A stretch of DNA of 40,218 nucleotides from contig CADAXZ010000007.1 of the NCBI GenBank assembly GCA_902791965.1, positions 1-40,218 on the forward strand, in the 5' to 3' direction. A program made the position numbers and the translations under genes. This DNA is from Candidatus Proelusimicrobium bovinum. GTDB taxonomy: Bacteria; Elusimicrobiota; Elusimicrobia; Elusimicrobiales; Elusimicrobiaceae. The notes beneath the pieces are model-generated. The model was not told the DNA's origin. It saw only the letters and a program-made list of their open reading frames with translations, and searched no databases. Shown here piece after piece: positions 21,829 through 39,210 of this stretch (positions are counted from its first letter, which is position 1; each line of letters begins with the position of its first letter).

Positions 21829-22130
21829 AAAGTATGCCCGTATGTATCGTTAGGGTTTTTAATTACCGCTTTGGCAAAGGCTTGCTCGGCATCTTTATAT
21901 TTAGACATACTTAAAGCCCTTACCCCCTGATACATATTAGCATAGGATTGGCTTTCCATAAGGTTATCCCAAAAGGTAGGGTATTTGCCTTCAAGGTTGG
22001 CTTTATTGCCGCTTATACCAAGGCCGCTGCCGCCCATAAATTTAGGTAATGCGGCGCCGGAACTTTGTGCTATACATAAAAACAAAGCGGCAATAATAAA
22101 ATTTCTACTTAAATTACGCAAGCAATACAT
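21762..22130 (-). CDS. TPR-repeat protein, 5' part of a frameshifted gene
   Basis: This 122-aa ORF supplies the signal peptide (NFIIAALFLCIAQSSGA, about 10-27) and the first repeat (KYKDAEQAFAKAVIKNPNDTY) of the exported TPR protein continued in the 20281-21828 frame. The last 20 or so residues are read out of frame and are not meaningful. No Shine-Dalgarno precedes the ATG. An extended -10 TGCTATAAT ends 6 bases upstream, which suggests a leaderless mRNA. Confidence 0.72.
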   Translation of the reverse strand: MYCLRNLSRNFIIAALFLCIAQSSGAALPKFMGGSGLGISGNKANLEGKYPTFWDNLMESQSYANMYQGVRALSMSKYKDAEQAFAKAVIKNPNDTYGHTFWVLRYIGKDRLTKQWRNTAPP

Positions 22131-22215: not shown

Positions 22216-25200
22216 TTAATTACTTAATTCTCTATCACTCGCAACATCACCCGGCTTTGCACCTTTTGGCCCACAACCTTTTGCGGCAATGTTAATTTGA
22301 ATCCTTCCATTACCGAATGATACATCTCTATCTTCTCTATCTTTATATCTCTTATAGCCTGTTGTATCAAGTTCGTCTTTGGGTGTTACATTCTCAAAAC
22401 CTACGACATGTGTCGCTTCAGGACTTAAAGATACTTTAACTTTAGAAACTAAGTCATTGGCATTATCATCTTTCTGAAGTCTTTCAAACATTTTATGCAT
22501 AGAATAGATTGCTCTATCTTCAGACAATGCCTGATTACATTTTTTCCTTGCCTCAGTATCTTGATTACCTTTAGGACCGTAGTTATATTTTTTAACCACG
22601 CCGGTCGTGATGTTCACATCAACTGCCCCCCAAGAATCTAATTTAGAATTCTTGTTTTTTACGCCATTATCATAAGTAGGACACTTTTCAAACGCATCAC
22701 TACCAGCGAAACTTGTAAAACCTGTGACATAAAGATTTTGGCCTGCACTTGTATTATCGGAAACAGTCTGTAAGCATTGTAAAAACTTAGCATATGCATC
22801 ATCAAACTGTTTAGTTTCATTTGCTTTAAAACTTGTTGTATCAAAACTTAAATATGCCGCAAAATTACAAGCCTTTTTTATCTCTACATCAGTAGGATTA
22901 CAGAAAGGACATAAAGCATCATTATCTACAATCGGTTCTAATCCAGGAATACCTGAAATCACATTAGAAGCAATCAACGGAGAGCCATCATCTTCGGCTT
23001 GACCTTCTCCGCTACCGGATTTCCTTAGAATTTCCCTCTGTTCAGCCTCAAGTCTCTTTTTACATATAGGTTGACAAAGATGTATTTTATCCTTGCCATC
23101 CGTTTCATTCCCTATATGCCCTGCTATACAGGTACCACAGTTTTCATTATTTGCATCAATACCAAACTGTGCGAGGTATTTGCGTTTTGCTTCATCACTA
23201 ATCGGATTAGTACTCTTCTGTAAGAAAACGGTTGCATCTCCCTTTTGAACTTTAACAGCATTAAAGAAAGAATAAGAAGAACCATCTTTTACAGCACAAT
23301 ATTCATCATTATCGTCGTCATCGTCATTATCCGGTGGTGTAGGGCAAATGCTTGAAGAACAACCCCAAGAATAATCACAAGTCTTAACTTTGTAAGCCCC
23401 ATTGATACCTACCAATGTTTTAACATCCACTTGTGTTATGAGTTTGCCAGCATGGAAAGTATTAGCATAACTCTTATCTATATTAGCATTAGTAACAATC
23501 CAATATACCCTGCCATTATTAGGAGTTGCTTTACTATCTACAACAGAATTTTCACCAATCAATAACTGTTGAGTAAAGAATCTATCAGCACCATTATTAC
23601 CTGCACCTGCTCTACGAAAAGCAGAGTTTTGTTCCGCCGTAACTTCATCAATAGTACGGATAAATACGCCTTCTCCTTCATTGTTTTTGCCGTTTTCTAC
23701 AACAACAGCAAACACCCTATCCTTTTTACTCAAGCCTTTAATATCAGCATAGAATTTAGTCTGGGCGGCTTTTAGACCTTCCTTAACAACATCACCGCAT
23801 TCAATATTATCAGCACCCTGATTTATGCCGACAGGATTGATTTCAACACCTGAATTAAAAACTTGACATTCATTTGAGCCAATTTCCGCTATTGCTTTAG
23901 AACGATCTTTAGCATCCATCAAGTCAAACAAGTCAGAACGTGTAAGAGGTTTTGACGGGAAATCAGCAGGCAAAGAAGAACAATATCTCCATCCTTCAGT
24001 CGCTCTTTCTTTTGCTTTTGCTATATTATTTGCAATTTCTTTTTTAGTTTGATTAGCCTTAAAAGAACCTATATTGGTAATTTCGCATTTAGTTTGTATT
24101 TGAGCTAATTCACTTTCACTAATCGTAAGAGTATTATCTGTAGGCTCATTTAATTTTATGATAAACAAGTCATTAGAGTCTTTTTTAGCATTTTTGTTAA
24201 TTGTTCCTTGGGTATTTTTTTCTCTTGCCAACACATAAATTACTACTTTTTCTTGTTTCTTTTCTCTTACTCTGCCATCTTTGCGTGTAGCACTTACAGT
24301 ATATCTAATAGGCTTTTGATTTACCCCATCACAATTAGCATTATACCGAGTTTTAGACAAACCGGAAAGTTTGCCCGCTTTAAGACCCAAACATTCAAGA
24401 CGAGCCTGCAAGGCATTTTTCTGTCCTGCAGGGTCAACATCTTCATGACCACCTAAGTTAGCACAACTTTTTAACCAAGCTTCATAAACATCAGCACCTA
24501 AAGAATTTACAGAACCATCTTTACCAGCAGACCCCTTAAAGACAGCAGCAAAGTCTTCAAAACTTCTTCCTACTTGTTTACCGTCTTTTACACAAACGGT
24601 AGAATCGTCCCCAGGTTTTATTCCTAAAAAGTTTTTTACAGAGCCGTCTTCGGAACCTGTAAGCAGGCACATACCCAAATTGGTGGCAACTTTAATTAAG
24701 GAATCGGAAAGGGCTTTCTGCCAATTATAATTCCAAAGTTCCCAAAGTTTCTGGGAGCGTTCCTGCATCATATCCCACCACCAAGGTTTCTGATTGGTGT
24801 AGTTGAATTTATGATCCGGAACTGTGCCTTGGGACGCTAAACGCGCTGCAGCCGCACGAGGATCGCCTGCCGCACCTAAAGGAGAGCCGTCAACATCGCG
24901 CAACTGCGCTTCAAACAAAGCCTGCTTTGCAGGGCCTTGGTTTAAAGCACCTATTGCACGGTCTCTTTCTCTGTAAAGATTATCGCCCGTAAGCACTCTG
25001 CCCGCACCGGAAGTAGTCATAGGCTGTAAAGCAACAGGCCTTACTCCTGCTCTGGGGGCTGAAGGAGAAGGATTTCTTGTAGGGGCACCGCCGATAGCCA
25101 AATTGCGTGTTAAACCTCCGTTTCCGTTGCCGAAGGAGAGGTTTCTGTTTCTTAAAGCACCAAGCGCAGTAGGTTTACGGGTAGCGGAATTCCTGATACC

Positions 25201-25695
25201 GCCTTTTGCCGCTTTGCCATAAGTGCTGATATTTGGCTTAGAGGTTACTTCCTCGTGGGAAAAACTTTCACGGCGGTTATCGTCTATCATAGAACTGGTA
25301 GGCGGTTCGTATTCGTCCTCTTCCATAGCAGGGGTATCCTGATGTCCCTTATTGGTAATAATCATATCTAAGGGATTACGCCTGTCTGCAGGGACAATAT
25401 CACCGTCGCCCGGGATATAATCCAAACCGTGTCCGCCGTCACCGACAAAATTGTCATAACCTAAATTATCTAAACCGCTTACATAATCGGTTCCGGAATT
25501 ACGGCTAAGCAACGGCAGCAATAACAACGCAGCGGCCGCTACTATTATGAAAGGCAAATCCCTTTGAGCCCTTTGGATAAGGGTTCTCTTGGCTTTGCCG
25601 TCTCCTCCTGAACGGGAGGGAATACGTTTGGATAATGGAAGAGATTTACTCTTCTTTAACTTATCGCTAAACGTAAAGCTATCTTTATTTGGCAT
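22216..25695 (-). CDS. Large membrane-anchored protein with C-terminal OmpA-like domain
   Basis: A 1159-aa protein with a basic cytoplasmic N-terminus, one membrane anchor (47-64, DLPFIIVAAAALLLLPLL), then a Gly/Asn/Arg-rich low-complexity stretch to about 250. It also has a Trp-rich patch KPWWWDMMQERSQKLW, a long unrecognised region with many cysteines, and an acidic run DNDDDDDND before a Cys-rich part. Residues about 945-1130 look like an OmpA-type peptidoglycan-binding fold: YLSFDTTSF, LYVTGFTSFAG, NQALSEDRA, and GFENVTPKDE with a late R-x-x-R. The usual TD of the binding loop reads TS. It has its own promoter, a leader hairpin, a strong GAGGAGG site and a terminator. It likely links the inner membrane to the cell wall. 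Confidence 0.8.
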   Translation of the reverse strand: MPNKDSFTFSDKLKKSKSLPLSKRIPSRSGGDGKAKRTLIQRAQRDLPFIIVAAAALLLLPLLSRNSGTDYVSGLDNLGYDNFVGDGGHGLDYIPGDGDIVPADRRNPLDMIITNKGHQDTPAMEEDEYEPPTSSMIDDNRRESFSHEEVTSKPNISTYGKAAKGGIRNSATRKPTALGALRNRNLSFGNGNGGLTRNLAIGGAPTRNPSPSAPRAGVRPVALQPMTTSGAGRVLTGDNLYRERDRAIGALNQGPAKQALFEAQLRDVDGSPLGAAGDPRAAAARLASQGTVPDHKFNYTNQKPWWWDMMQERSQKLWELWNYNWQKALSDSLIKVATNLGMCLLTGSEDGSVKNFLGIKPGDDSTVCVKDGKQVGRSFEDFAAVFKGSAGKDGSVNSLGADVYEAWLKSCANLGGHEDVDPAGQKNALQARLECLGLKAGKLSGLSKTRYNANCDGVNQKPIRYTVSATRKDGRVREKKQEKVVIYVLAREKNTQGTINKNAKKDSNDLFIIKLNEPTDNTLTISESELAQIQTKCEITNIGSFKANQTKKEIANNIAKAKERATEGWRYCSSLPADFPSKPLTRSDLFDLMDAKDRSKAIAEIGSNECQVFNSGVEINPVGINQGADNIECGDVVKEGLKAAQTKFYADIKGLSKKDRVFAVVVENGKNNEGEGVFIRTIDEVTAEQNSAFRRAGAGNNGADRFFTQQLLIGENSVVDSKATPNNGRVYWIVTNANIDKSYANTFHAGKLITQVDVKTLVGINGAYKVKTCDYSWGCSSSICPTPPDNDDDDDNDEYCAVKDGSSYSFFNAVKVQKGDATVFLQKSTNPISDEAKRKYLAQFGIDANNENCGTCIAGHIGNETDGKDKIHLCQPICKKRLEAEQREILRKSGSGEGQAEDDGSPLIASNVISGIPGLEPIVDNDALCPFCNPTDVEIKKACNFAAYLSFDTTSFKANETKQFDDAYAKFLQCLQTVSDNTSAGQNLYVTGFTSFAGSDAFEKCPTYDNGVKNKNSKLDSWGAVDVNITTGVVKKYNYGPKGNQDTEARKKCNQALSEDRAIYSMHKMFERLQKDDNANDLVSKVKVSLSPEATHVVGFENVTPKDELDTTGYKRYKDREDRDVSFGNGRIQINIAAKGCGPKGAKPGDVASDRELSN

Positions 25696-25744
25696 AGTGC
25701 CTCCTCTTTACATTTATTTTACATCTACTTCAAATCTGATACGG

Positions 25745-25779
25745 ATATAAGGTTTGCCTTTAAAGGCAATACCCTATAT
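25745..25779 (-). other. Long hairpin in the 5' leader of the 1159-aa gene
   Basis: A 9-bp outer stem (AUAUAGGGU with ACCUUAUAU, one G-U) encloses a 6-bp inner stem UUGCCU/AGGCAA with a UUAA loop and a single bulged A. It starts just after the predicted transcription start and is not followed by a T-run, so it looks like an mRNA stability or regulatory hairpin, not a terminator. Confidence 0.5.
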
Positions 25780-25783
25780 TCCC

Positions 25784-25812
25784 ATTAGACAACAATTTTT
25801 AAACAATGTCAA
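25784..25812 (-). promoter_or_regulatory. Promoter of the 1159-aa gene
   Basis: TTGACA (25812-25807), a 17-base spacer, TCTAAT (25789-25784). It lies in the 192-base gap before the gene. The gap also holds a weak TATCAG/CTGATA repeat at 25848-25888 and AT-rich sequence. Confidence 0.75.
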
Positions 25813-25887
25813 TTAATAATTAATATAAAAATATTTCTTATTTTAATATCAGCCTTTTATTATCAAATTTAGTTTAAAAACCTGATA

Positions 25888-27513
25888 CTAAAAGAATGTG
25901 TTTGATATAATATTGTCCAGATTAAGCCCTGTCTGTTCAGACACATCTTTTATTAAGTTTTCCCTCTCGCTTCTGTTTTTATATCTATTTTGTTTTAAAC
26001 TGTCATATTGATCCCAACAACAGGTCGTATTATTTGCCACACATTGGAATACCTGTTTTTCTAACTGGCTTTCTTCGTCTATAACCGTAACTAAAGGCTC
26101 TTCATCCCAGAAGTTGGCAAATCTGTTAGTTTTCATTTCTTCAAATCTTTCACAATACAAATCATAATTAAAACCGCAAATAGCAGAAACCCTTTCTATC
26201 TTTTGATGTATTTTTTCGCAATAATCTTTAAGTTCATCTATTTTTTCGTCCCAATTTTGTCTTTGGGCATTACATGAAACTGTTCTCCACTCAGGGTCTC
26301 CGGTGTATGTTTTATCTGTACTGCACATACAGGGAGCATTTAAAGATAAAAACGCACTCTTAGCATTTACAAAATTTTCTCTTGCAGTTTGTATATCTTC
26401 ATCACTTATTGCAGCCTTTAAACATTCTTCCATCTTTTTATTGGTTTTATCAATTATAGCCGAGGAAGATTCAGATGCAGAACCAGCAATAAGGGACATT
26501 TCGGCAGAGGTTAAGATATGAGGTGTTTTTTCATCTACGGCTAACATATCCTCCGCTTGGACTTCCCCTCCGTCAAAAGCCGCTTCCGCTACATTTTTGG
26601 CGACATCATTATATTTTTGTCCTCTTGCTTGAGAACTTAAATAATAAACCCTTCCCATATCTCTGCCGGAAAAGCCAAACGCATTTAACTGCCTGCTTGA
26701 ACCAATACTTGTTCCCACGCGCGTAGTTCTTGCGCCGTTGCCACCCATAGTACCAAGCCTTCCTAAGCGCAAAGCCTTTACTTTACTGTCAATAGCCTGA
26801 AAGTAAACATTATCTTCATCACTTCTGGCAGATCTCATTTTACCAGAATAATTTGATCTGAACGGCCTGTTTTTATCTGAATTCTTCAAGACCATATTGC
26901 CGTTGGAATCATACTCCGTCAGCGAACTTGCTTGATAAGCAGAATCTATTGAATCAGATTCAAAACTTTTTACCAAAGGTTTACCGTAAGCATCATCATA
27001 ACCTTTAGATGATTCGGGGTCTATAGCAGGGGCTGCTGCTTCAATGCCTTTATTACCGTAATAAGCAGGAACGGATACACCTTCCGGCGCTTCAATATCC
27101 CTGCCTGATGCAGAACCGCGGATATTATTCCATTTGCCGGTTCTGTCAAATTCAGCCAAATAAGATTCTTTGGCGTCAATCATACGGTTGCCTGCCTGTA
27201 AACTGAAAGGCGAAAGCCCGCCTGCACTTTCATAAACAGAATACTGGTTGCTGCGGACGGAGGCCAGCCTTCCTCCGTCTTTAGCACCTAAACTGTAAGC
27301 GGCAAAATCAGTAAAATTTAAGGAGCGCATAGAATCGTCATTCAAACCGAAAACATTTCCCATACGCCCTAAAAAGGGTATATCAGCCATAGGCATAGTC
27401 ATTACCGAAAAGGCCAACATCAGCAATATAAGTATTGCCACTAATGTCAACCTTTTATCTTTATAAATAGGAGTCCTTTTATTGTTATTTTGCACTATGT
27501 TTTTCTTTTTCAT
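25888..27513 (-). CDS. Membrane-anchored cysteine-rich protein of unknown function
   Basis: A 541-aa protein with a basic N-terminus and one membrane segment (22-40, LTLVAILILLMLAFSVMTM). It has a long polar exported region, a block around 250-330 shared with the 28120 gene (GRLGTMGGNGAR, then FSGRDMGRVYYL, then AKNVAEAAFDGG), and a C-terminal 180 residues with about 12 cysteines (CMC, CC, CEKI, CGFNYDLYCERFEE) that suggest disulfides. I recognise no family. It follows the 186-aa-class gene by 36 bases, has an AAGGG ribosome site, and precedes the promoter of the 1159-aa gene. Confidence 0.72.
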   Translation of the reverse strand: MKKKNIVQNNNKRTPIYKDKRLTLVAILILLMLAFSVMTMPMADIPFLGRMGNVFGLNDDSMRSLNFTDFAAYSLGAKDGGRLASVRSNQYSVYESAGGLSPFSLQAGNRMIDAKESYLAEFDRTGKWNNIRGSASGRDIEAPEGVSVPAYYGNKGIEAAAPAIDPESSKGYDDAYGKPLVKSFESDSIDSAYQASSLTEYDSNGNMVLKNSDKNRPFRSNYSGKMRSARSDEDNVYFQAIDSKVKALRLGRLGTMGGNGARTTRVGTSIGSSRQLNAFGFSGRDMGRVYYLSSQARGQKYNDVAKNVAEAAFDGGEVQAEDMLAVDEKTPHILTSAEMSLIAGSASESSSAIIDKTNKKMEECLKAAISDEDIQTARENFVNAKSAFLSLNAPCMCSTDKTYTGDPEWRTVSCNAQRQNWDEKIDELKDYCEKIHQKIERVSAICGFNYDLYCERFEEMKTNRFANFWDEEPLVTVIDEESQLEKQVFQCVANNTTCCWDQYDSLKQNRYKNRSERENLIKDVSEQTGLNLDNIISNTFF

Positions 27514-27549
27514 ACAAATACCCTTTTTATTTATATTACTTTATTTCCG

Positions 27550-28095
27550 CTATTTTTTAAACATTGTAGACTTATTATTATTTCGGCCGGAAGTCTGCAA
27601 TCTGTTTATTACCGTCCCGCCGGTATTTTGTTTATTATTCTTTTTTACCGTATTATGTGCAGTATTATGTGCAGACGGTGTTTTACCCATTTTTTTATCA
27701 AGTTCAGCCTGTTGCTTTTTTTGTTCTGCAAGTCTTTGGGCTTCTTGTTGCTTAATTTCCCGTACCCGTTGGTCGTATTCATCAGCCTGGCTTGCATAAT
27801 CAACAGTTTCAAACCCGCCCGTCTGCTGTGTACCGAATTCTTTTTTTGCCGTTTTAAGGAAAACTCCCGTACTATCCTGACGGCCGGTATCTTCCCTATC
27901 CAACGGCATATAAATAACTTTCTGGGGACGGCGCGGATCTAAAAGGCCTTTAGCCCTTAAATCAAACTCTATCTGTTCACGCTGTTTTTTTATATTACCG
28001 TCTATTACAGATTTAGCGACAGTCTGTATTGCCCAACTTCCTATCAAAGACACCGCTATAACAGTAATATAAAATTTAAGTTCTTTTTTGTCCAT
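27550..28095 (-). CDS. Small membrane-anchored protein of unknown function
   Basis: A 181-aa protein with one membrane segment near the N-terminus (FYITVIAVSLIGSWAIQTVA), then a soluble region including IEFDLRAKGLLDPRRPQKVIYM. A charged coiled-coil-like helix rich in Gln, Lys and Glu (VREIKQQEAQRLAEQKKQQ) is followed by a basic Asn/Thr-rich tail. I start at ATG 28095 because GGGGAAGGGG lies immediately upstream. The ATG 15 bases earlier has no ribosome site. It lies between two larger members of the block. No family is recognised. Confidence 0.7.
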   Translation of the reverse strand: MDKKELKFYITVIAVSLIGSWAIQTVAKSVIDGNIKKQREQIEFDLRAKGLLDPRRPQKVIYMPLDREDTGRQDSTGVFLKTAKKEFGTQQTGGFETVDYASQADEYDQRVREIKQQEAQRLAEQKKQQAELDKKMGKTPSAHNTAHNTVKKNNKQNTGGTVINRLQTSGRNNNKSTMFKK

Positions 28096-28119
28096 TTTCC
28101 CCTTCCCCATTAATAATTA

Positions 28120-29646
28120 TTAACCGCCAAAGAAACCGCCTACACCGCTGAGTAATGCCATACCACCGCCCATAATAAGAGCTTTTTGCAGCATACCGGT
28201 TATATGTAATCCTTTTGCTGTTCCAGTAACAGCTTGGCTATGAATCATTCCCAACCAAGGTAAACCGGCTATAACCGCAGGTAGCCACCACCTCATATGC
28301 GCCCAAGCACCCGCATCGGCTAATGCTTCAGTTTTAACATGTTCAATTTGGTTTACATACATACCAATCAAACCCATACCAAGCCCTATAATAGCAACAG
28401 AAAAAGCGGCCGCAATAACAGGGGCAATCCAAGCGGCTATCCAAGAAGATCTTGCAGCCAAAACTAAACCTATACCTACAAGTGCCATAGAAACTATTGT
28501 TATAACAGTACTCATAATACCTTTTTTGGCTTTAGAAACTGTATTAGAATCAGCTGTAATTTGGTTCATAAGATCGCCGATTTTATTTGTATTTCCCTTT
28601 ATTTTAGAACCTTCTTTTTGTAAAGTAGCAGCCTTTTCCGTTATAGGTGTAGAACCGTTTATTTCCACACCTTCATCAGGCGCTACACTACCGTCAAAGG
28701 CTTCTTCTACAAATACTTTTGCTTCTTCTTTATAATTAGTTTTTGTACCTAAATTGGAATATTTTTGGGCGTGTAATAAACCAATCGTAGCACCGTCAAA
28801 ACCATAAGACTGGCCGCTGCCGCCGTTACCCCTTGTACCGCCGCGGGCACCGTTGCCGCCCATTTGCCCTACTCTGCCGTGTTTTTTACCGTCAATACCG
28901 CTTATATCGCTTACAGGCATATTGCCGATATTAGGAGTATTTATAGCGGTTTGATTCCTGTCCCCTGCATAACCTTGTATTTGCCCTATATTGCGAGAAC
29001 CGCCGCCTTTGGCACTTGCAAATGTCCCGCTGCCCATTTTTCCGGAAGAATTAAGTTTGTTAACCTGCGTACCGAAAGCACTATCAGAACTTTCAAGTTC
29101 TTCTTTCTTTTTACCGTCTTTATTTTTTTTGCCGTCTGTTGCTTTTGCATCTGCCGTAGCAGCGCCTGCCTTTGCGGCTGATGCGATATTGTTAAAATTA
29201 CCCATAGCATTTGCCATCTCAGGCGACATACCGGTTTCAAGATTATTTTCCCCTTCATAACCGGCATTATTCATAGCCATAGGATCAATGGTGCCGTTTT
29301 CATAAGCAGTGCCTTTTTGGCCGTAAGCAAACCTGCCTTTACCTGCCGCGCCCAAATAATTTAAGGAATTTGCATTTCCGCTATTTGCCTGATTTAAGGC
29401 CATTTGCTGTTCTAAGGCTTCTTTACTTAAATTATCATTATAGTAGATACCGTCATTATCGCCATAAACTACTTGGGCGGTATCTGCCGAATAATGGCTT
29501 AAAGCCCTGCCGCTACTGCCTTTAGGGCCGTCAGTTAAAAAGTTGGTAGCAACACCTATACCAACCGCTACGGTTGCAACACCCAAAGCCGCGCCGAATA
29601 ATACCGGCTTGGATATTGCCCCCACTTTGTTTAATATGTTTTTCAT
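28120..29646 (-). CDS. Polytopic membrane protein with Gly/Asn-rich exported region
   Basis: A 508-aa protein I do not recognise. Residues about 13-37 are a membrane anchor (LFGAALGVATVAVGIGVAT). A long Gly/Asn/Ala-rich exported stretch follows, then the GRVGQMGGNGAR block (about 255-340, ending EEAFDGS) shared with the 25888 gene. The C-terminal 130 residues hold three or four membrane segments (TVITIVSMALVGIGLVLAA, PVIAAAFSVAIIGLGMGLIG, and ALIMGGGMALLSGVGGFFGG at the end). This topology, with a channel-like C-terminal part, differs from its one-anchor relatives. An AAGGAG site precedes it and the gap to the upstream gene is 31 bases. Confidence 0.72.
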   Translation of the reverse strand: MKNILNKVGAISKPVLFGAALGVATVAVGIGVATNFLTDGPKGSSGRALSHYSADTAQVVYGDNDGIYYNDNLSKEALEQQMALNQANSGNANSLNYLGAAGKGRFAYGQKGTAYENGTIDPMAMNNAGYEGENNLETGMSPEMANAMGNFNNIASAAKAGAATADAKATDGKKNKDGKKKEELESSDSAFGTQVNKLNSSGKMGSGTFASAKGGGSRNIGQIQGYAGDRNQTAINTPNIGNMPVSDISGIDGKKHGRVGQMGGNGARGGTRGNGGSGQSYGFDGATIGLLHAQKYSNLGTKTNYKEEAKVFVEEAFDGSVAPDEGVEINGSTPITEKAATLQKEGSKIKGNTNKIGDLMNQITADSNTVSKAKKGIMSTVITIVSMALVGIGLVLAARSSWIAAWIAPVIAAAFSVAIIGLGMGLIGMYVNQIEHVKTEALADAGAWAHMRWWLPAVIAGLPWLGMIHSQAVTGTAKGLHITGMLQKALIMGGGMALLSGVGGFFGG

Positions 29647-29677
29647 ATAAGACTCCTTTTTAATATAAAATTTTATG

Positions 29678-30661
29678 TTAGAATAAAGAACCTAAATACG
29701 AACCTAAAACCGTCTTACCTACATCCAACAATTGTGCTACTACACACCCCGCATTAGCAAAAGGGTCTTCCGCACAGGTTTTTTCACTTTCGTTATCTTT
29801 TTCTTTCTTTTTATCATTAAGTTTGGTATCTAATTTATCTAATTCTTCACTATTACCGGCTTTTTCAAGTTTGTCTTTCAAATCTTCTTCATCTACTTCT
29901 AAAGCAGCGGCATTTTTTTCATTCTCACTTTCCAAAAATTCTTTACTCTCTTTTTTTGCTCCGCCTTGAAAAGCCTCTGCCGCGCCTGCCGCAGCGGCAT
30001 TCATATCTTTCGCATTTGCTGCACGAGCGCTTAACTGTGCTGCCTGCTGGAATCCTGTATCTCTGCCGCCTTTTACCTGTGCAAGCAAAGCCGCCTGCTG
30101 TTGCATATTTTTAGAATTTTGCGCTCTGTTATCATTATAATATCCAGTAGAGCCGGCTGCGCCGCGGCTTGCGCCGCCAAAAGATCCGGAACCTGAAGAT
30201 CCGCTTAACTGCCCTTTATTTGTTCTTACAACAGGTGCAGGGCTGTTTACGCGGACATTTTTCTTTTTGTTTTTACTTTTCTTTACGGCAACTTCTTCTT
30301 GTGCGGCTTTATATTCGGCATCAGGCGCTGCCGGAACGCCCTGCGTAATATCAGCTAACTGTCTTGCTTCCCTTTGTTTAGAAGAAAATAAGCCGTTAAT
30401 AAAATCATTTTTGGCTATATCTTCATATCTGGCTGAAGCAAGCAGATATTTTTCTGCTTCATCATCGGAAAACGGCATTTTGCCTAAATCAAATGCCTGC
30501 TTACGGTATGCCTCCTGAGAATCATTTTTCTGTTTGTTCCCCTTTACCGCAGCAGTTAAAGAAAGTAAAAATACTACTACCAATATACAAGCGCCCCAAG
30601 TATAAATTTGAGTATTTTTATTTTTTCTTTTACCGCCGTTTCTCATTATTATTGAAGACAT
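29678..30661 (-). CDS. Membrane-anchored protein, DIAKND-motif paralogue 1
   Basis: A 327-aa protein with one membrane segment (20-38, ACILVVVFLLSLTAAV). The block at 63-102 reads MPFSDDEAEKYLLASARYED, then IAKNDFINGLF, then EARQ. A Ser/Gly-rich linker, a Gln/Ala-rich helical region with GGRDTGFQQAAQLSARAA and AEAFQGG, and an acidic helix EKNAAALEVDEED follow. The C-terminus has two cysteines and QLLDVGKTVLGSYL. All these blocks recur in the same order in the 30837 gene. I choose ATG 30661 because AAAAGG is 8 bases upstream. A GTG at 30670 overlaps that site. It has its own promoter and the 57-nt leader element. Confidence 0.75.
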   Translation of the reverse strand: MSSIIMRNGGKRKNKNTQIYTWGACILVVVFLLSLTAAVKGNKQKNDSQEAYRKQAFDLGKMPFSDDEAEKYLLASARYEDIAKNDFINGLFSSKQREARQLADITQGVPAAPDAEYKAAQEEVAVKKSKNKKKNVRVNSPAPVVRTNKGQLSGSSGSGSFGGASRGAAGSTGYYNDNRAQNSKNMQQQAALLAQVKGGRDTGFQQAAQLSARAANAKDMNAAAAGAAEAFQGGAKKESKEFLESENEKNAAALEVDEEDLKDKLEKAGNSEELDKLDTKLNDKKKEKDNESEKTCAEDPFANAGCVVAQLLDVGKTVLGSYLGSLF

Positions 30662-30691
30662 ACTTAACACCTTTTATATATATAATAAAAC

Positions 30692-30748
30692 TGGCCCCTG
30701 CTGACCGGCCCTTTATGTAAAGGCCCTCAAACACGGAGCATATTTATC
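30692..30748 (-). repeat. Conserved structured leader element, copy A
   Basis: A 57-base element in the 5' leader of the 29678 gene, differing from copy B at two positions. On the minus strand GCUCC (30739-30735) can pair with GGGGC (30698-30694), with one U-G pair. An inner hairpin (30726-30707) is GGGCCUUU/AAAGGGCC with one G-G mismatch. The facing loops GUGUUUGA and GGUCAGCA are identical in both copies. It also contains a tiny ATG-CTC-CGT-GTT-TGA reading frame. It does not match a riboswitch class I know. Confidence 0.75.
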
Positions 30749-30770
30749 AGTACACTAAGTACCTACCTAA

Positions 30771-30799
30771 AGTATACCAACAAACAGCCAAATTGTCAA
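30771..30799 (-). promoter_or_regulatory. Promoter of the 29678 gene
   Basis: TTGACA (30799-30794), a 17-base spacer, TATACT (30776-30771), a near-consensus sigma-70 promoter. The predicted start is about 16 bases before leader copy A. Confidence 0.85.
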
Positions 30800-30836
30800 T
30801 ACCGAAAAATAAATATATATAGTATACAACGGCATA

Positions 30837-32114
30837 TTATTTCCCTGCTTTTCTATTCTGTCTTTCTGCTTTCTTGTTCGCAGCGGCCTGCTGCTTTTGT
30901 TTTGTCTCCCAAGCCTTTACCGACATATTATGTTTACTATCCCAGCCACCTATTTTACCACCTGCTTTGTAATACGCGGCTTCAGCAGCAAGGTTTTCCC
31001 TTGTAGTAGGATCTTTTTCCGTCTTCATCTGTTCTTCAAGCCTGCCTACCTCAGCGGCCTGATCGGGAGACATACCGTTTTTATCTTTTTTGCTTAACAT
31101 AGATGTTAATGCCTGCTTACCTACATCCATTAACATATTCATAAGTGTCCCGGCAGTGCAAGCCATGTCAAAAGAGCCGTTCATCATAAGCCCGTCGCAT
31201 TTCATATCTTTTTTATTTTTGTCTTTTTTATCATTATCTTTTTTTGCTTTATCCAACGCTTCATCAAGTGTATTAGCCGCGCGGGCCTCTTTATCTTTAT
31301 CTAACTCCCCCATCATCTTATTTATATCAAGGCCTTCGGCATTTTTTTCCAATTCTCCTTTAAGGTCCCCTTCCAAATCACCTGCATTTTGGAAAGCATC
31401 TGCCGCCAATCTGTGGGCTGCTTCCAAATCATTGGTATTTGCGGCTTCTTTACTTTTATTGTATGCCTGCATAAAACCGCCGCCGCGCCCGCTGCCGTCT
31501 TTAATATTTTGCACTAACTGCCCGCTTAAAGATGAACCTTTACCGCCGGCAGATGAAGATGTGTTGTATTGTTTATCATCACTGCGCCATACACTGTGCG
31601 ATACCCCGCCGCCTGCACCGCTGCCGACTTTAATACCGCTTTGGCTTGACATTTGCCCTTTTGATGTCCTTTCTTTGCGTGCATTTATTGCATTTGTCCT
31701 TGATCTCCGGTATTTTTCTTTAGCCTGTTTTACTTTTGCCTTTTCCTTAGCGGCCTGTGCATAATCCTCATCGGGAGGAGGAGGCGCACCGTTTGCGGAA
31801 TCTTCTGCTTGGCGTGCTTCTTTTTCATCTTCAGAAAATAAGGCACTGATTAAATCATTCTTAGCAATATCCCTATAACTTACAGAAGATAACAATTCGG
31901 CTTCGGCTTCCTCATCGGAAAAGGGCATATCAGCCAAATCTTTATAATCATTATATCTGTATTCCGGATCTAACGGATCGGCAGGTTTAGGCCCGCCGAG
32001 TAAAACAGATGCAACTACCGCTATACCGAATACCGCCACAGCCCCGTATCCTATCCAAGATGACATAGGGCTTTTTTGGTTTTTGCCATTATTTCCCTGT
32101 ATAATTACCGGCAT
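30837..32114 (-). CDS. Membrane-anchored protein, DIAKND-motif paralogue 2
   Basis: A 425-aa protein paralogous to the 29678 product. It has one membrane segment (20-40, WIGYGAVAVFGIAVVASVLL), the block MPFSDEEAEAELLSSVSYRD, then IAKNDLISALF, then EARQ at exactly 63-102. A basic linker, a Ser/Gly-rich segment, GRGGGFMQAYNKSKEAAN, DAFQNAG and EKNAEGLDIN follow. Two cysteines precede LMDVGKQALTSML. A Lys/Gln-rich tail of about 80 residues is specific to this copy. A GAGGG site lies 7 bases before ATG. It has its own promoter and leader copy B. The function is unknown. Confidence 0.76.
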   Translation of the reverse strand: MPVIIQGNNGKNQKSPMSSWIGYGAVAVFGIAVVASVLLGGPKPADPLDPEYRYNDYKDLADMPFSDEEAEAELLSSVSYRDIAKNDLISALFSEDEKEARQAEDSANGAPPPPDEDYAQAAKEKAKVKQAKEKYRRSRTNAINARKERTSKGQMSSQSGIKVGSGAGGGVSHSVWRSDDKQYNTSSSAGGKGSSLSGQLVQNIKDGSGRGGGFMQAYNKSKEAANTNDLEAAHRLAADAFQNAGDLEGDLKGELEKNAEGLDINKMMGELDKDKEARAANTLDEALDKAKKDNDKKDKNKKDMKCDGLMMNGSFDMACTAGTLMNMLMDVGKQALTSMLSKKDKNGMSPDQAAEVGRLEEQMKTEKDPTTRENLAAEAAYYKAGGKIGGWDSKHNMSVKAWETKQKQQAAANKKAERQNRKAGK

Positions 32115-32157
32115 ATCTTTACCCTCTTTTAAAATCTAAATTAATATACAAAAATTT

Positions 32158-32214
32158 TGGCCCCTGCTGACCGGCCCTTAATTTAAAGGCCCTCAAACAC
32201 GGAGCATATTTATC
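32158..32214 (-). repeat. Conserved structured leader element, copy B
   Basis: The second copy of the 57-base element, 43 bases before the ATG of the 30837 gene. The two changes from copy A fall in the apical part of the inner hairpin (32192-32173). The closing stem (32205-32201 with 32164-32160) and both internal-loop strands are unchanged. Confidence 0.75.
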
Positions 32215-32236
32215 CGCACATCAAGTGCTTACTAAA

Positions 32237-32265
32237 AGTCTACAAACAAAGGCTTTAATTGTCAA
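32237..32265 (-). promoter_or_regulatory. Promoter of the 30837 gene
   Basis: TTGACA (32265-32260), a 17-base spacer, TAGACT (32242-32237). The layout relative to leader copy B is the same as for the 29678 promoter and copy A. Confidence 0.78.
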
Positions 32266-32274
32266 GGCATAAAA

Positions 32275-32296
32275 TGCAATTACAATACAAACTGCA
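32275..32296 (-). terminator. Possible weak terminator after the TadE-like gene
   Basis: A 7-bp stem TGCAGTT/AATTGCA (one G-U pair) is followed by TTTTA on the minus strand, 14 bases past the TadE-like stop. Partial readthrough is likely. Confidence 0.35.
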
Positions 32297-32310
32297 ATAA
32301 GTAAAAACAA

Positions 32311-32865
32311 TTAAGGCTGTTTTGACATCGGCATACGGAAAGATATAGGCCTGTCCCTGTTGGGAACTCTTTTAATAACTTCTATACTACCGCCTTTTTT
32401 ACAAATAAAATTATATCCCCGTTCGCACGCAAGGCCATACGGATTTTTACAAACTTGTCTTATATCATAAGAACATAAAAACGGTATAGCCGGCGGATAA
32501 GTTGTTACGGTTAAAGTGACATTGTTCCAAACATTTGTGCGTTCTATTTCAAGTTTTACTTTTTTTAATGCAAGAAATTTCCTCATAGCAGGATTATTAT
32601 AACCTATATAATCAACTACTTTCTTTTCTATATCTTTTTTAAGGAAAGTATTATCCCAGCCGTCGGCCCATTTAACAGCGCGGTGGCTTTCCAGTTGCCA
32701 GCGTTTAGCAGCATAAAAAGAGGCTATTTCCGCTTTCTGAACGACAATCAAAAGACCGTATATTTTTATAATAAAAAGCGTTAAAATAAAAAATATCGGG
32801 AACAGCAAAACGACTTCAGTCGTTGCCTGGCCTTTGCGGGATTTAAGAAAATTAAAAATTTTCAC
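32311..32865 (-). CDS. TadE-like pseudopilin
   Basis: A 184-aa protein with a TadE/TadF-type N-terminus. A basic leader KSRKGQ is followed by ATTEVVLLFPIFFILTLFIIKIYGLL, with the conserved Thr-Glu at the start of the hydrophobic helix. A soluble domain of about 140 residues contains three or four cysteines. Tad minor pilins help assemble Flp pili. No TadA ATPase, TadB/C or prepilin peptidase is in the window, so they must lie elsewhere if this is a Tad system. Its ATG overlaps the TadG-like stop by 4 bases. Confidence 0.78.
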   Translation of the reverse strand: MKIFNFLKSRKGQATTEVVLLFPIFFILTLFIIKIYGLLIVVQKAEIASFYAAKRWQLESHRAVKWADGWDNTFLKKDIEKKVVDYIGYNNPAMRKFLALKKVKLEIERTNVWNNVTLTVTTYPPAIPFLCSYDIRQVCKNPYGLACERGYNFICKKGGSIEVIKRVPNRDRPISFRMPMSKQP

Positions 32866-33944
32866 GGGAATATCCTCACTTGGTATTTTGGTGTAGGGTT
32901 AGGCCATACGCAGTTATTATCTTCTTTAGTACACTGTAAGGATGCCCTGACATGGTTATGCGGCTTATATTTCTTTAGATTAACATTAAAATAATTACTG
33001 GGTAAATTAAAAGGCTGGTTTATGTCAATACCTTTATAAAGTTTACGCAGTTTATTTATATACCCCCTGTCAACATAAGCATACTGAAATAATTTCCCGT
33101 CAAACATATTTTCTTCTTCAAGATTAAGAGTAATTGTTTTAGTTTCATCTGAGTAATCTTCAGGGTTTACATAATAAAATTCAATAATTTTTACATAAAC
33201 AGGGGAAGTTTTTGCTATATAATCTTTAAATATTTTTGCCCCCTGCTTACCGCATTCGCTTAATTTGCAATCACCTGCATTAAGATAATAACCTTTACGG
33301 AAAAATTCCCCGCCTTTACTTACTTTAAGATACACAGATTTTTGGTCCTCGTAAATACGGCTTATAAAATAATATATCAAAACATAAAGTTTTACCGCTT
33401 CAGGATTCCAGCCTATGGCATAGGCTTCGGCCAATGTTTTTGACATAATAGGATATGGTTTAGAATCATCTATATTAGGCGGATTAGCGGTATTCCATCC
33501 TTCTCTGGGATTTTCATCTTCCATTTCGTCAAAAAAGTCCAATTCCCATATAGTATCGGTTCTTTTAGGCTCGGAATCATAAGCATCCATAGCGGGGAAT
33601 GCACCGCCTTGGTAAAACAAATCATATAAAGTAAGAGTTTTGTTATTGGGGTTATCTTTCGGCCCAAACATTTTTTCCTTACCTGCAGGGTCTAAATTTT
33701 CCGCAAACAACCTAAACGGAAAAGCCCCGTTTGTATAAGCAACAGCATTCAAATATTGGGAAGTGTTTGTAAGTTCTACAAAGGCTGAAGTATCCAATGC
33801 AAACTGATGACGGATTTTTTCCCTTGAAACTTTAGCTGTTTCAAACAAAAGATAAATCACAAGCAAAATAGTAGGTATCAGCAAAATTGCAGGTAATACT
33901 ATTTGCGCTCTTTTGTTTTTTATCAGTTTAAATCCCAAAAACAT
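32862..33944 (-). CDS. TadG-like exported protein
   Basis: A 360-aa protein starting with KNKRAQIVLPAILLIPTILLVIYLLFETAKVS (from about 8), the layout of Tad/Flp-associated TadG/RcpC-like membrane proteins. A DTSAFVELTNTSQYLNAVAY helix resembles the TadG 'D-x-A-x-x-x-A' region. A large soluble domain follows. There is no von Willebrand MIDAS that I can see. It starts 5 bases after the Flp-like pilin and overlaps the TadE-like gene. The family call rests on the N-terminus and context. Confidence 0.68.
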   Translation of the reverse strand: MFLGFKLIKNKRAQIVLPAILLIPTILLVIYLLFETAKVSREKIRHQFALDTSAFVELTNTSQYLNAVAYTNGAFPFRLFAENLDPAGKEKMFGPKDNPNNKTLTLYDLFYQGGAFPAMDAYDSEPKRTDTIWELDFFDEMEDENPREGWNTANPPNIDDSKPYPIMSKTLAEAYAIGWNPEAVKLYVLIYYFISRIYEDQKSVYLKVSKGGEFFRKGYYLNAGDCKLSECGKQGAKIFKDYIAKTSPVYVKIIEFYYVNPEDYSDETKTITLNLEEENMFDGKLFQYAYVDRGYINKLRKLYKGIDINQPFNLPSNYFNVNLKKYKPHNHVRASLQCTKEDNNCVWPNPTPKYQVRIFP

Positions 33945-33949
33945 TTACC

Positions 33950-34123
33950 CTATCCTAAAATACTTCCTATTATTGTAAAAAATCCGCCTGCAAGTTCTTT
34001 ATGAAAAGTTACAATAAAAGCCAGCGCAACAGTAACTACCGTGCCGAGCATAAGGATAAACTCCACCGTCTGCTGGCCCCGTCTGTTGTTAATCTGCTTA
34101 AACGCTGTCTTTAATATTTTCAT
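33950..34123 (-). CDS. Flp-type pilin, 57 aa
   Basis: A small gene below common ORF cut-offs. The protein begins MKILKTAFKQINNRRG and continues QQTVEFILMLGTVVTVALAF, a type IVb prepilin signature. Cleavage after Gly16 leaves Glu at +5 and Phe at +6 (Flp pilins usually have Tyr), then one hydrophobic helix and a short tail ending IGSILG. The major Flp pilin is usually 50-80 aa. It begins 4 bases after the response-regulator stop and ends 5 bases before the TadG-like start, tying the regulator to the pilins. The ribosome site is weak (AGG). Confidence 0.75.
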   Translation of the reverse strand: MKILKTAFKQINNRRGQQTVEFILMLGTVVTVALAFIVTFHKELAGGFFTIIGSILG

Positions 34124-34127: not shown

Positions 34128-34793
34128 TTACCTGTCAGAAGAAATTATACCTAATTTTATTGCTTTTACAACTGCCTCGGTTCTGCTGGTAACATCAAGT
34201 TTATGAAATGCACTGTTAAGATGATTTTTAATCGTTTTAACACTGCAACCTAACTCCAATGCAAGTTCCTTATTACTCATGCCTCTGCCTAACAAATCTA
34301 ATACGCGCACTTCTGTTTTTGTTAAAGTAGCCTGAACGGGAGTATTATTATCACCCATCTTTCTTAGGCCTTGTAAAAGTTTACCCATAAGTTGCTGGGG
34401 AATCATCAGCCCTTCCGAAGTAAAAGTGCGTATTGAATTTACAAGTTCGGCTGCGGGCAACATCTTTGAAAGGTATCCGTTTGCACCTGCTTGTATGGCT
34501 TCCATAACATGGGCTTCGTCTTCAAAACTGGAAAGCATAAGTATATTTACTTCCGGCTGGTTCTTTTTGATTTGCTTCGTAGCCGAAATACCGTCCAATT
34601 TAGGAAGTTTAATATCCATAAGTACAACTTCCGGTTTAAGTTTTTTGGTAAGGGCAACAGCCTCTTCCCCGTCGGATGCTTCGCCTACCACATCTATCCA
34701 CTTTTCCCCTTCTAAAACATCTTTTATTCCCTCACGAAAAAGTGTTTGGTCATCAGCGATAAGAACTTTAACTGTTTTTTTCTTTGCTGGCAT
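34128..34793 (-). CDS. NarL/FixJ-family response regulator
   Basis: A 221-aa regulator. The receiver domain (about 8-125) has the acidic pocket ADD (13-15), the phospho-acceptor Asp60 in VVLMDIKLP, and the S/K switch region (MLSSFE, LSKML). The C-terminal LuxR helix-turn-helix (about 155-215) has LTKTEVRVLDLLGRGMSNKE and SVKTIKNHLN. It probably receives phosphate from the adjoining kinases and controls this block. The ribosome site GAGGAG precedes ATG. Confidence 0.93.
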   Translation of the reverse strand: MPAKKKTVKVLIADDQTLFREGIKDVLEGEKWIDVVGEASDGEEAVALTKKLKPEVVLMDIKLPKLDGISATKQIKKNQPEVNILMLSSFEDEAHVMEAIQAGANGYLSKMLPAAELVNSIRTFTSEGLMIPQQLMGKLLQGLRKMGDNNTPVQATLTKTEVRVLDLLGRGMSNKELALELGCSVKTIKNHLNSAFHKLDVTSRTEAVVKAIKLGIISSDR

Positions 34794-34796: not shown

Positions 34797-35927
34797 TTAC
34801 TCCTCATTACTTACAGGTAATGTAAAGATAAAAGTAGAACCGAAACCTTCCCCCTCGCTTTCGGCCCATATATTACCGTCGTGATTAAGCACTATATCCC
34901 GCGCTATTGAAAGCCCAAGGCCCAACCTTCCGCCCTGCCCTTTCTGATAGAAACTTTTAAACAACTCTTTTGTTTCCGCAGGATTTATACCTACTCCGCT
35001 ATCCTTAACAGATACTTTAGCATTTTTGTTGTCAATTTTCACTACCGAAATTGTAATTTTTCCGTTTTCGGGCGTATGGCGTATAGCATTTTCCGTTATA
35101 TTTGAGATTACTTGCCTTATTCTTTTAGGATCTCCGAATACGGTAATTTCTTCTTTGCCTTCAAAAGTCATAAAAATATCTTTTTGTTTTGCTTTTTCTT
35201 TAAAAATTTCAAAAGCGCTTTTTATTGAAGATGTAAGTTCAAAATTAGTTTTTTCCAAACGCAGTTTCCCTTTTTCTATCGCAGCCCAATCTACCAAATC
35301 CTTAACAAGCAGAAAAATTTGTCCCAAACTGTCTTCCATATACTGCATTTTGCGCTGTTGGTTTTCATCCGGCGTTTTTATGGTTTTTTTAAGCATATCA
35401 TAACTCATCTTAACTGCCATAAGGGAATTGGAAAGGTCGTGCGAAACAACCGAAAAGAATTTGCTTTTCATATTATTAAGATTACTTAAATCAGCATTAT
35501 TTTCTTTAAGTTGTTCCAACAGTTTGCGGTTGCTCTGCTCCAAATAAAACTTTTCCAAAGCCATTTTAATAGTACGCTTTAAATAATCAAAATCTACCGG
35601 TTTTATAAGAAAGTCATATACCGATTCCTGTATCGCTTTTACTACTGCATTTAAAGAAGCATGTGCTGTTATCATTATAATTTGTGATTGTGTATTAAAC
35701 TGTCTTATTTGTTTAACGGCATCAAGCCCTGTACCGTCCACCAAGTTATAATCCATTAAAATTACCGTAAAAAAATTATTATGCACAAGGGACATACATT
35801 CTTTTATACTGCCGGCCTGATATACATCATAACCTTCCATTTCCAAAAGTTCGCTTAAAGTCCCGCGCAAATTATCATCGTCATCAACAACAAGTATTTT
35901 TACCTGTTTTAAGTCAATATTTGTCAT
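34797..35927 (-). CDS. Receiver-histidine kinase hybrid
   Basis: A 376-aa cytoplasmic protein. An N-terminal receiver (10-125) has DDDD and phospho-acceptor Asp59, then a coiled linker. The HisKA has His163 in FFSVVSHDLSNSLMAVK, and the HATPase has N box NITENAIRHTP, DSGVGI and GRLGLGLSIA. It has no membrane segment. Reversed order (receiver first) suggests that phosphorylation by the upstream kinase tunes its own kinase activity. It overlaps the sensor kinase gene by 4 bases and lies 3 bases before the response regulator gene. Confidence 0.93.
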   Translation of the reverse strand: MTNIDLKQVKILVVDDDDNLRGTLSELLEMEGYDVYQAGSIKECMSLVHNNFFTVILMDYNLVDGTGLDAVKQIRQFNTQSQIIMITAHASLNAVVKAIQESVYDFLIKPVDFDYLKRTIKMALEKFYLEQSNRKLLEQLKENNADLSNLNNMKSKFFSVVSHDLSNSLMAVKMSYDMLKKTIKTPDENQQRKMQYMEDSLGQIFLLVKDLVDWAAIEKGKLRLEKTNFELTSSIKSAFEIFKEKAKQKDIFMTFEGKEEITVFGDPKRIRQVISNITENAIRHTPENGKITISVVKIDNKNAKVSVKDSGVGINPAETKELFKSFYQKGQGGRLGLGLSIARDIVLNHDGNIWAESEGEGFGSTFIFTLPVSNEE

Positions 35928-37756
35928 TTTGTTTCCCCGTAAATCTTAAAAATCATACTTATTTTTGTACCTTTGCCTTCTTCGCTTACAAGTTCTATTT
36001 GAACATTATTCCTGCCTGCGACTTTTTTAACTACTGCAAGGCCGAGGCCTGTTCCGCGCGCTTTAGTAGTAAAGAACGGCGTAAAAATATTTTCCCTTAT
36101 ATCTTTAGGAATGCCGGGGCCGCTGTCGCGTATACTCAATACTGCTGTGCCTGCTTCCCCGCCAAAAGTTTTTATTACCAAATGTCCGCCTTCCGGCATA
36201 ACCTCTATGGCATTGCCTATTATATTTCTTACTGCCTGCTTCATTTCCTCAGTATCTATTTTTACTATTAAAGAAGTCCCCGCAAATTCCGTAGAAACTT
36301 TTATATTTGCAGGCATAGGATAAGAGGCTAAAATCTCTTTAATATAAAGCGTTAAATCCGTAACGGAAAGTATTTGTTCGCGGCTTCGTGCATAGCCTAA
36401 AATTTCTTCTATAATACCGTTGGCCTGATTGATTTCCTGGTCAATTACGGATATGTTTTTAAGTATTTTAGGTTCGGCATTTTCCCCAAGTCTGGCCTTA
36501 ATAAGATATACTGCATTCTTAATTACCGCAAGAGGATTTTTTATTTCGTGGCTGACGATTGATGCCATTTGGCCGATGGCCGCCAATCTTTCTTTTTTAA
36601 TAAGTTCATTTAAAGCAGTACGCAGTTCCCTCGTTCTGCTGCCTACCCGCAACTGTAAAGACTGGTTAAGTTCTTGTAAATCCTGACGGTTCTGCTTCAT
36701 TTCCTCAAACTGGATTTTTATAGTATCTAACATTCGGGCAAAAGTCTTTGACAAAACACCTATTTCATTATCGGGCGCAGGCAAAGAAGGGACTTCATCT
36801 GCCCCCTGTTCTACGGCGGTTACGGCATTAGTCATTGCTTTTACAGGCCTTACTATAATTACAGTTAAATACAAAGATAAAATAACCAAACAAATAACCG
36901 CTGTAAAAATAACGGCCGCTAAAAGCATCGGAGATTTTTTTATATAAGATAAGAAAGGAAAAGACAAATCCTTAGAAGGTTTACCCGTAAAAACCACCCA
37001 GCCGCTTGAGGGAATTTCACTTAATACACCGCTGAAATTTCTGACCTCTACAAAACCGTAAATATCGTTTTTAACATAATTTATCAGTTGGGATATTTCA
37101 ATATTATAAGAATCATCCAATACGGTACTAATACCATCAGCACTTGAATAAATTAAAAAACCGTTTTTGGTAAATATTAAGGTTAAATTCTCTTTTGAAA
37201 CCGAAGATTCTATAAGTTCTTCAAAAAATTTTAAATCAAACTGCACTACAATCGCGCGGTTGGCATTATGTATTTTATTAGGGAATGCCATCGTAAGCGT
37301 TAACATTTTTTTAGACGGATTTTTATTTAAAGCGCCTATAAAAACTTTATTATTGTCTATTACGGTATAAATAATATCTGAAACACTTTCCTGATAATTT
37401 ATTTTAGGACGCATACCAAAATAAACTATCTCATGGCCTACCGCATCTAAAAATGATATACCGACTACAGAAGGATTCCTTGTTAAAAACATTTCTACAA
37501 GTTTGGAATAATTATTCCTGTCCAATCCTGCAGAACGAAGTTCCAATAAAGTAGAGATAAGTTTCTCATTTTGGGAAAGATAAGAAGCAGTTTCATTGCT
37601 TAAACGCACATTATATATTTCAAAATGTTTTTTATATTGCTCTTTCAAAACACTTTCCCAAGTCTGCAACATATAAAAACCAAACAATAATAACGGCAGT
37701 AAAGCCGCAATAAAAACAACGCCGAAAATAGTATGCCTTAAATGTCCGTTATTCAT
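35924..37756 (-). CDS. Membrane sensor histidine kinase
   Basis: A 610-aa kinase with an N-terminal membrane segment (about 8-30), an exported sensing domain (about 32-280) of double-Cache type by length and pattern, a second membrane segment ([21 protein letters not shown], near 283), HAMP (about 305-355), HisKA with His403 in [12 protein letters not shown], and HATPase with [21 protein letters not shown] and GTGLGLAVV. The ligand is unknown. There is no clear Shine-Dalgarno before the ATG. It is the first gene of a three-gene regulatory set feeding into the pilin genes. Confidence 0.93.
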
Positions 37757-38898: not shown

Positions 38899-39210
38899 TT
38901 AAAAAGCGGAATTATCTTCAGCCGGGGCGGCAGAGGATTCTTCTGCTTCTTCAATTTCAAATCTGATACCTTTTATACCGAAAGAGCATAAAAGATTATA
39001 AACAAAAGCCAAGGCTAAACTGATTACAACAAGGCTTAAAGTTTGGGCTAAAGTCCACAAAACTATCTGCATAATTTTTTGGACAAAAGTATAATCGCTT
39101 AAATCACCTATTGCAAAAATAGCATTCAAAAAACTTAACACAAAAAGTACTAACGGATATACCGAAAATACCACCGAAAGCAAATTTATATTTTTAATTT
39201 CAAGTTTCAT
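38899..39210 (-). CDS. Small membrane protein with two helices; unknown function
   Basis: A 103-aa protein with hydrophobic segments at about 12-32 and 52-82, the second ending AFVYNLLCSFGIKGIRFEIE. This pattern (Y-N-L, then a Gly-rich bend and an acidic strand) recurs in small conserved transmembrane proteins of unknown function. An acidic tail EEAEESSAAPAEDNSAF follows. AAGGAG precedes the ATG. It lies between the sensor and the DsbA-fold gene. Confidence 0.65.
   Translation of the reverse strand: MKLEIKNINLLSVVFSVYPLVLFVLSFLNAIFAIGDLSDYTFVQKIMQIVLWTLAQTLSLVVISLALAFVYNLLCSFGIKGIRFEIEEAEESSAAPAEDNSAF

What the first reader, a model, noticed from the sequence alone, without database searches (positions are those of the whole stretch)
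22216..34123. Candidate undescribed envelope apparatus next to Flp pilin genes
Nine same-strand genes: Flp-like pilin, TadG-like, TadE-like, then six large proteins I cannot place in any family. All six have an N-terminal membrane anchor and most expose long Gly/Asn/Ser-rich exported regions. One ends in an OmpA-like wall-binding domain, one is polytopic, one is cysteine-rich. They share internal modules and promoter style. Together they look like parts of one inner-membrane-to-wall machine, perhaps a pilus scaffold, secretion device or adhesin system, that is not a standard Tad locus.
Basis: partly seen in the sequence, partly recalled or inferred. Interest (0 to 1): 0.78.

Follow-up and report, generated by a model that had tools for sequence, protein, structure and literature searches.

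The report
Undescribed envelope gene set beside Tad pili
Next to the pilus genes of a gut bacterium of the phylum Elusimicrobiota lie six membrane-anchored proteins that match no known family; relatives of the set recur in the same order across much of the class, and in the gut family it is headed by a folded RNA leader found nowhere else in those genomes, so it looks like a real cell-envelope machine nobody has described, whose job is still unknown.

Summary
The three pilus genes are not an odd Tad fragment: they are the last three genes of a complete Tad locus conserved across the order; the other half is on contig C36 of the same genome. The six genes after TadE match nothing in Pfam, NCBIfam, PHROGs or the PDB, even with family-wide profiles. 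They are not confined to this genome. An E-D-B-A core recurs in order in sister genera, in the sister family (there a separate operon away from Tad), and with 3-4 D copies in further families of the class (A profile: 185 of 341 Elusimicrobiota genomes). In several genera of Elusimicrobiaceae it is attached to the 3' end of the Tad locus. Where it is scattered (an Elusimicrobium minutum-like genome), every core gene is kept. E, D and B share one ~44-residue module. A new structured leader RNA (two-sided changes in 9 of 12 tested pairs) precedes E/F, and also the relocated A; it occurs 1-2 times per genome, only there. Best reading: an inner-membrane-anchored periplasmic scaffold that works with the Tad pilus; an independent envelope machine is nearly as likely. 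Function is inferred; novelty is well supported.

The parts
22216..25695 (-). A: 1159 aa, N-terminal anchor (46-64) with invariant Asp46 and Pro61, conserved PWWWDM / WELW motifs, 24 Cys, beta-rich middle, degenerate OmpA-like C-terminus
25888..27513 (-). B: 541 aa, N-terminal anchor, shared ~44-aa module, C-terminal Cys-rich helical region with Cys conserved order-wide
27550..28110 (-). C: 186 aa, small anchored protein, poorly conserved, found in genus g1 (possible short equivalents in g2)
28120..29646 (-). D: 508 aa, N-terminal anchor, Gly/Ser-rich linker, shared module, C-terminal membrane helices (335-492 mostly confident in model); 2-4 copies in other lineages
29678..30670 (-). E: 330 aa, anchored, conserved DLxxMPF..YxDI region and shared module; real start probably the ATG three codons in
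30837..32114 (-). F: 425 aa, paralogue of E (about 35% identical), present in part of the genus
30687..30746 (-). leader RNA of E: covarying hairpin, 60 nt as modelled
32153..32212 (-). leader RNA of F: covarying hairpin, 60 nt as modelled
30771..30799 (-). promoter-like TTGACA-17-TATACT upstream of the E leader
32237..32265 (-). promoter-like TTGACA-17-TAGACT upstream of the F leader
32311..32865 (-). TadE-like minor pilin
32862..33944 (-). TadG-like protein
   Evidence: position and conservation
33950..34123 (-). Flp-type pilin
34128..34793 (-). LuxR-type response regulator of the Tad locus
34797..35927 (-). receiver-histidine kinase hybrid of the Tad locus
35924..37756 (-). histidine kinase (HAMP) of the Tad locus
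37908..38861 (-). unassigned 317-aa protein of the Tad locus
38899..39210 (-). unassigned 103-aa protein of the Tad locus
39227..40033 (-). HAMP/Cache-like protein of the Tad locus, shortened by the contig end; the locus continues on G000:C36
20281..22130 (-). TPR protein linked to A; one ORF in relatives, two overlapping ORFs here

Best explanation
A-F encode an inner-membrane-anchored scaffold in the periplasm that in this family works alongside the Tad pilus machine. Shown: each protein has an N-terminal anchor; A, B, D, E and F have the layout anchor - flexible linker - C-terminal part; E, D and B share one ~44-residue module; the core is an ancient set kept as a unit; E, F and (when relocated) A lie behind the same structured leader RNA. 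Inferred: the shared modules meet in the periplasm and assemble the proteins into one complex; D's C-terminal membrane helices form its base; B's conserved cysteines stiffen it; A reaches towards the wall or outer membrane (its C-terminus is OmpA-like in two genera); the complex braces, aligns or positions the Tad machine, whose secretin is unusually short; the leader RNA sets the output of the block apart from the Tad core.
For: Block directly 3' of TadE in g1 (part), g4, g5 and g6, ending A-TPR-KsgA in g1 and g6. Core genes all retained when dispersed. Leader RNA shared by E, F and relocated A. Shared module with clean nulls. Where the A family is found, a close TadZA is almost always found too, and families f5 and f7 have neither. 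The Tad secretin is 242-248 aa, little more than the Pfam secretin domain, whereas P. aeruginosa RcpA has 416 residues with an extra N-domain and a C-terminal S-domain that binds TadD (PMC10499894).
Against: In the sister family and other families of the class the block is not beside Tad; in several g1 genomes and g2 it is also unlinked. The leader RNA was not found before Tad core genes. The Tad alignment protein CpaB/RcpC is present, so a bridge already exists. Tad is more widespread than A, and co-occurrence follows phylogeny. Both models have low overall confidence and match no known fold.
Confidence: 0.42

Rival explanations
1. The block is an independent envelope machine (secretion, surface-protein assembly or envelope organisation) that only came to lie beside Tad in the ancestor of Elusimicrobiaceae.
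For: Separate E-D-D-B-A operon next to dnaX/recR in the sister family; D-D-D-B-A followed by very large secreted proteins in further families. Own promoter and leader RNA.
Against: Tad linkage in four genera and nesting within Tad-bearing lineages would then be coincidence.
Confidence: 0.36
2. The set makes rapidly evolving anchored surface or adhesin-like proteins rather than one machine.
For: Low-complexity linkers; C-termini of A and F change between genera.
Against: Fixed gene order, one copy of A and B in nearly every genome, N-terminal motifs conserved across the class, shared module between E, D and B.
Confidence: 0.14
3. A and D form an ion-driven stator-like motor: D as the multi-helix channel partner, A as the single-helix partner with an invariant Asp at the membrane edge and a wall-binding end.
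For: Invariant [KR]xD-hydrophobic-Pro anchor in A across the class; helical membrane domain in D; OmpA-like end in g1/g2.
Against: Foldseek of D finds PomA/MotA/ZorA only at E 1.4-3.6, not significant; the OmpA-like end was not found in g6 or other families; the Asp lies at the edge of, not inside, the hydrophobic segment.
Confidence: 0.05

Closest known systems
Tad (tight adherence) pilus locus
   Same: The genes upstream of the block are a complete Tad set; many Tad systems were already noted in Elusimicrobia (PMC6668835).
   Different: A-F match no Tad component or any other family; TadZ and TadA are fused and the secretin is short.
CpaB/RcpC alignment complex of Tad pili (PMC12307814)
   Same: Inner-membrane anchor with a large periplasmic part, a possible functional parallel.
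   Different: The locus has its own RcpC (PF16976); A-F show no similarity to it.
MotB/Pal/OmpA-like wall-binding proteins
   Same: A of g1/g2 ends in an OmpA-like domain.
   Different: Degenerate in the window protein (GFTS in place of GHTD, ~60-residue insertion); not found in A of other lineages.
PilN/PilO/PilP-type alignment proteins of type IV pili
   Same: Bitopic inner-membrane proteins reaching into the periplasm (general knowledge).
   Different: No Pfam or PDB similarity; far longer, with Gly-rich linkers.

Membership tests
Tad pilus locus (genes upstream of the block) | TadA ATPase, TadB/TadC, secretin, CpaB, Flp pilin and TadE in one locus | tested here: met
Tad pilus locus (the six genes) | similarity to a known Tad component | tested here: not met
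   hhalign against TadZA, TadB and CpaB gives <=0.8%
Tad pilus locus (the six genes) | constant linkage to Tad genes | tested here: not met
   linked in g1 part, g4, g5, g6; unlinked in g2, other g1 genomes, f2 and the class-level loci read
OmpA-like (PF00691) | profile match at the curated cut-off | tested here: not met
   best E 0.0038 in relatives, none in the window protein
OmpA-like (PF00691) | homology to the OmpA-like end of relatives | tested here: met
   E 1e-12 against shuffles >=0.9; relative matches OprF/PAL
MotAB/ExbBD/TolQR-type stators | MotA-like fold of the polytopic partner | tested here: inconclusive
   no hit below E 0.47; model of low confidence outside 335-492
known riboswitch or leader RNA | Rfam match | tested here: not met
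known riboswitch or leader RNA | conserved secondary structure with compensatory change | tested here: met
   95% of cells paired, 9 of 12 pairs with two-sided change, covariation 0.73 against 0.30 shuffled and <=0.21 slid
structured pilus or stator component | location, assembly and pilus phenotype | not testable with these tools
   needs experiment

The most novel reading that the evidence does not exclude
A previously undescribed envelope nanomachine of the Elusimicrobiota, spread over several families of the class, built from paralogous membrane-anchored proteins with a shared periplasmic assembly module, and controlled in Elusimicrobiaceae by a new, machine-specific structured leader RNA.
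Probability: 0.5. Interest if true: 0.8.

Novelty: categorically new. Interest (0 to 1): 0.64.

Why it matters
It would add an envelope machine to a phylum with very few cultured members, give a set of unannotated proteins a common identity, and supply a genetic handle: the leader RNA marks the regulon wherever the genes move. If it belongs to the Tad machine, it would be a large lineage-specific extension of a pilus whose architecture is only now being resolved (PMC12307814, PMC13170226). Part of it could be tested in a cultured Elusimicrobium.

Tried and rejected
Viral origin: no relatives of B in viral contigs, no convincing PHROG match. Genus-restricted orphan set: first suggested by single-sequence searches, overturned by profiles. 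Incomplete or aberrant Tad locus: rejected, the other half is on contig C36. First scan of named genomes with D found nothing; a scan with the A alignment did, giving Elusimicrobiota titles. Fold searches of A and D gave nothing below 1e-3; the best A hits suggest only generic beta-sandwich (Ig-like) similarity. Stator reading kept only as a low rival. Weak f2 E-profile hits at first taken for low complexity proved to be real operons once their loci were read. Papers on Elusimicrobia with Tad pili, type IV pili or gliding gave no description of this set in titles, abstracts or the passages read.

Full report
What is there. The window is one contig (C7) of a 1.51-Mb draft genome. Named relatives are Elusimicrobiaceae / Elusimicrobia metagenome-assembled genomes, several titled from goat, sheep or buffalo gut samples. 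All nine genes of the finding are present on the - strand. The six after TadE are named here A (22216-25695), B, C, D, E and F (30837-32114). Each has an N-terminal hydrophobic anchor; only D has further predicted membrane segments; A and B are rich in cysteine; D is the only strongly Gly/Asn/Ser-rich one.

The Tad part is ordinary. In G017 the locus continues upstream of the window's end with a TPR protein, TadC, TadB, a TadZ-TadA fusion and a secretin, then CpaB and a TadE-like protein. In the window's own genome these genes are on contig C36, which ends in the TPR protein. The same order is kept in the loci read from four other genera of the family and two of the sister family, and the TadZA fusion is found in 58 of 60 relatives. 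The three regulators and three further proteins between TPR and Flp belong to this locus. Flp, TadG and TadE are simply its last genes. Tad systems in Elusimicrobia have been reported (PMC6668835). Two details are unusual: the fusion of TadZ and TadA, and a secretin of only 242-248 residues, against 416 with extra N- and S-domains in P. aeruginosa RcpA (PMC10499894).

The six genes are new families. No convincing Pfam, NCBIfam or PHROG match; no convincing PDB sequence match for profiles of A, B, D or E. AlphaFold models of A (mean pLDDT 53) and D (59, but 80-94 over much of the C-terminal helices) match no solved fold below E 1e-3.

They form a conserved module. Gene order E-D-(D')-(C)-B-A is kept in genus g1 and, without C, in g6. 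In g6 and part of g1 it reads Flp-TadG-TadE-E...A-TPR-KsgA. In g4 E follows TadE. In g5 eight anchored Gly/Ser-rich proteins follow TadE, including D-like, B-like (weak, E 5e-4, with matching cysteine pattern) and an A-like protein (the A match is also found with the wider profile, which includes this sequence). In the sister family f2 the module is a separate operon, usually with E-D-D'-B-A near dnaX/recR, away from Tad (the names dnaX and recR are my reading of the sequences). In f14/f15 it is D-D-D(-D)-B-A, followed in several genomes by secreted proteins of 880 to over 2200 residues without Pfam matches. The A profile finds 185 of 341 Elusimicrobiota genomes, in families f1, f2, f9, f12, f14 and f15. 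TadZA is wider: where A is present TadZA is almost always present, and families f5 and f7 lack both among the genomes listed; since both follow phylogeny this is weak evidence. In G018, a single contig of 1,643,562 bases that fits Elusimicrobium minutum from memory, the module is dispersed (A at 646 kb, E-D at 712 kb, B at 773 kb beside KsgA, Tad at 1303 kb), yet each core gene is kept.

Shared modules. hhalign of family profiles puts E 219-262 on D 270-313 (88%, E 3e-6) and on B 261-302 (25%, E 8e-4), with D and B overlapping consistently (34%, E 4e-4). These are profile positions. E and A share a different 33-residue stretch (88%). Reversed and unrelated profiles give at most 1.1%. A's N-terminus carries an invariant class-wide motif, [KR]xD - hydrophobic stretch - Pro, followed by a conserved R(D/N)P..LI in most members. 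The OmpA-like C-terminus is confirmed for g1 and g2 but was not found in g6, f2 or class-level members, so it is probably a late addition.

Leader RNA. The E and F upstream regions share a 30-nt exact block, and its 22-nt core is not found elsewhere in the genome even with 3 mismatches. Behind a strong sigma-70-like promoter lies a hairpin with a covarying outer stem, a conserved internal part and a covarying inner stem. Over 25 sequences 95% of cells pair, 9 of 12 pairs show two-sided change, and the covariation score is 0.73 against 0.30 shuffled and at most 0.21 when slid. RNAalifold gives the same fold independently. Rfam has no match. A covariance model finds strong hits in 31 of 36 Elusimicrobiaceae genomes, 1-2 each, in g1, g2, g4 and g6 but not in g3, g5 or f2; a few further hits at E 0.01-0.04 are probably chance. 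Where placed, the strong hits lie before E or F, and in g2 also before the relocated A. The leader thus marks one regulon and follows the genes when they move. Whether it senses a ligand, a protein product or neither is unknown.

How it most likely works. A membrane-anchored periplasmic location is well supported by anatomy (anchors, linkers, shared module, conserved order); that the proteins form one complex is inference. Co-operation with the Tad pilus is favoured by linkage in four genera, by nesting within Tad-bearing lineages and by the short secretin. It is opposed by independence from Tad elsewhere in the class, by separate control, and by the presence of CpaB/RcpC, the known Tad alignment protein (PMC12307814). 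I give 0.42 to the Tad-linked scaffold and 0.36 to an independent envelope machine; the evidence does not separate them strongly.

Verdict. 'Categorically new' describes the distance of these proteins and this RNA from anything in the searched libraries; it does not claim a proven mechanism, and other phyla were not sampled.

Noticed in passing
window 30687-30746 and 32153-32212 (-): New candidate structured leader RNA, 1-2 copies per genome in Elusimicrobiaceae, no Rfam match; a regulon marker for the E/F/A genes.
   Followed up: yes
window 20281-22130 (-): TPR protein is one ORF in relatives but two overlapping ORFs here: frameshift or assembly error.
   Followed up: partly
G000:C36 (L041): Contig C36 holds the missing upstream half of the Tad locus; the gene order fits C36 joined to this window in reverse.
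   Followed up: yes
L041:5986-8205: TadZ and TadA are fused into one 739-aa protein, as across the order.
   Followed up: partly
L041:5237-5980; L034:15237-15983; L039:15725-16453: Tad secretins of 242-248 aa, little more than the secretin domain.
   Followed up: partly
L097:16428-17750: In G036 (sister family) an anchored Gly/Ala/Ser-rich protein resembling the F-like gene of the separate operon follows TadE, a possible trace of an older Tad link.
   Followed up: partly
L020:3161-7164: In G005 the A gene is split into two ORFs.
   Followed up: no
L116-L119, L121: Class-level blocks are flanked by very large secreted proteins without Pfam matches; possible clients or partners.
   Followed up: no
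window 37908-39210 (-): Two unassigned proteins (317 and 103 aa) are near-constant members of the Tad locus across the order.
   Followed up: partly
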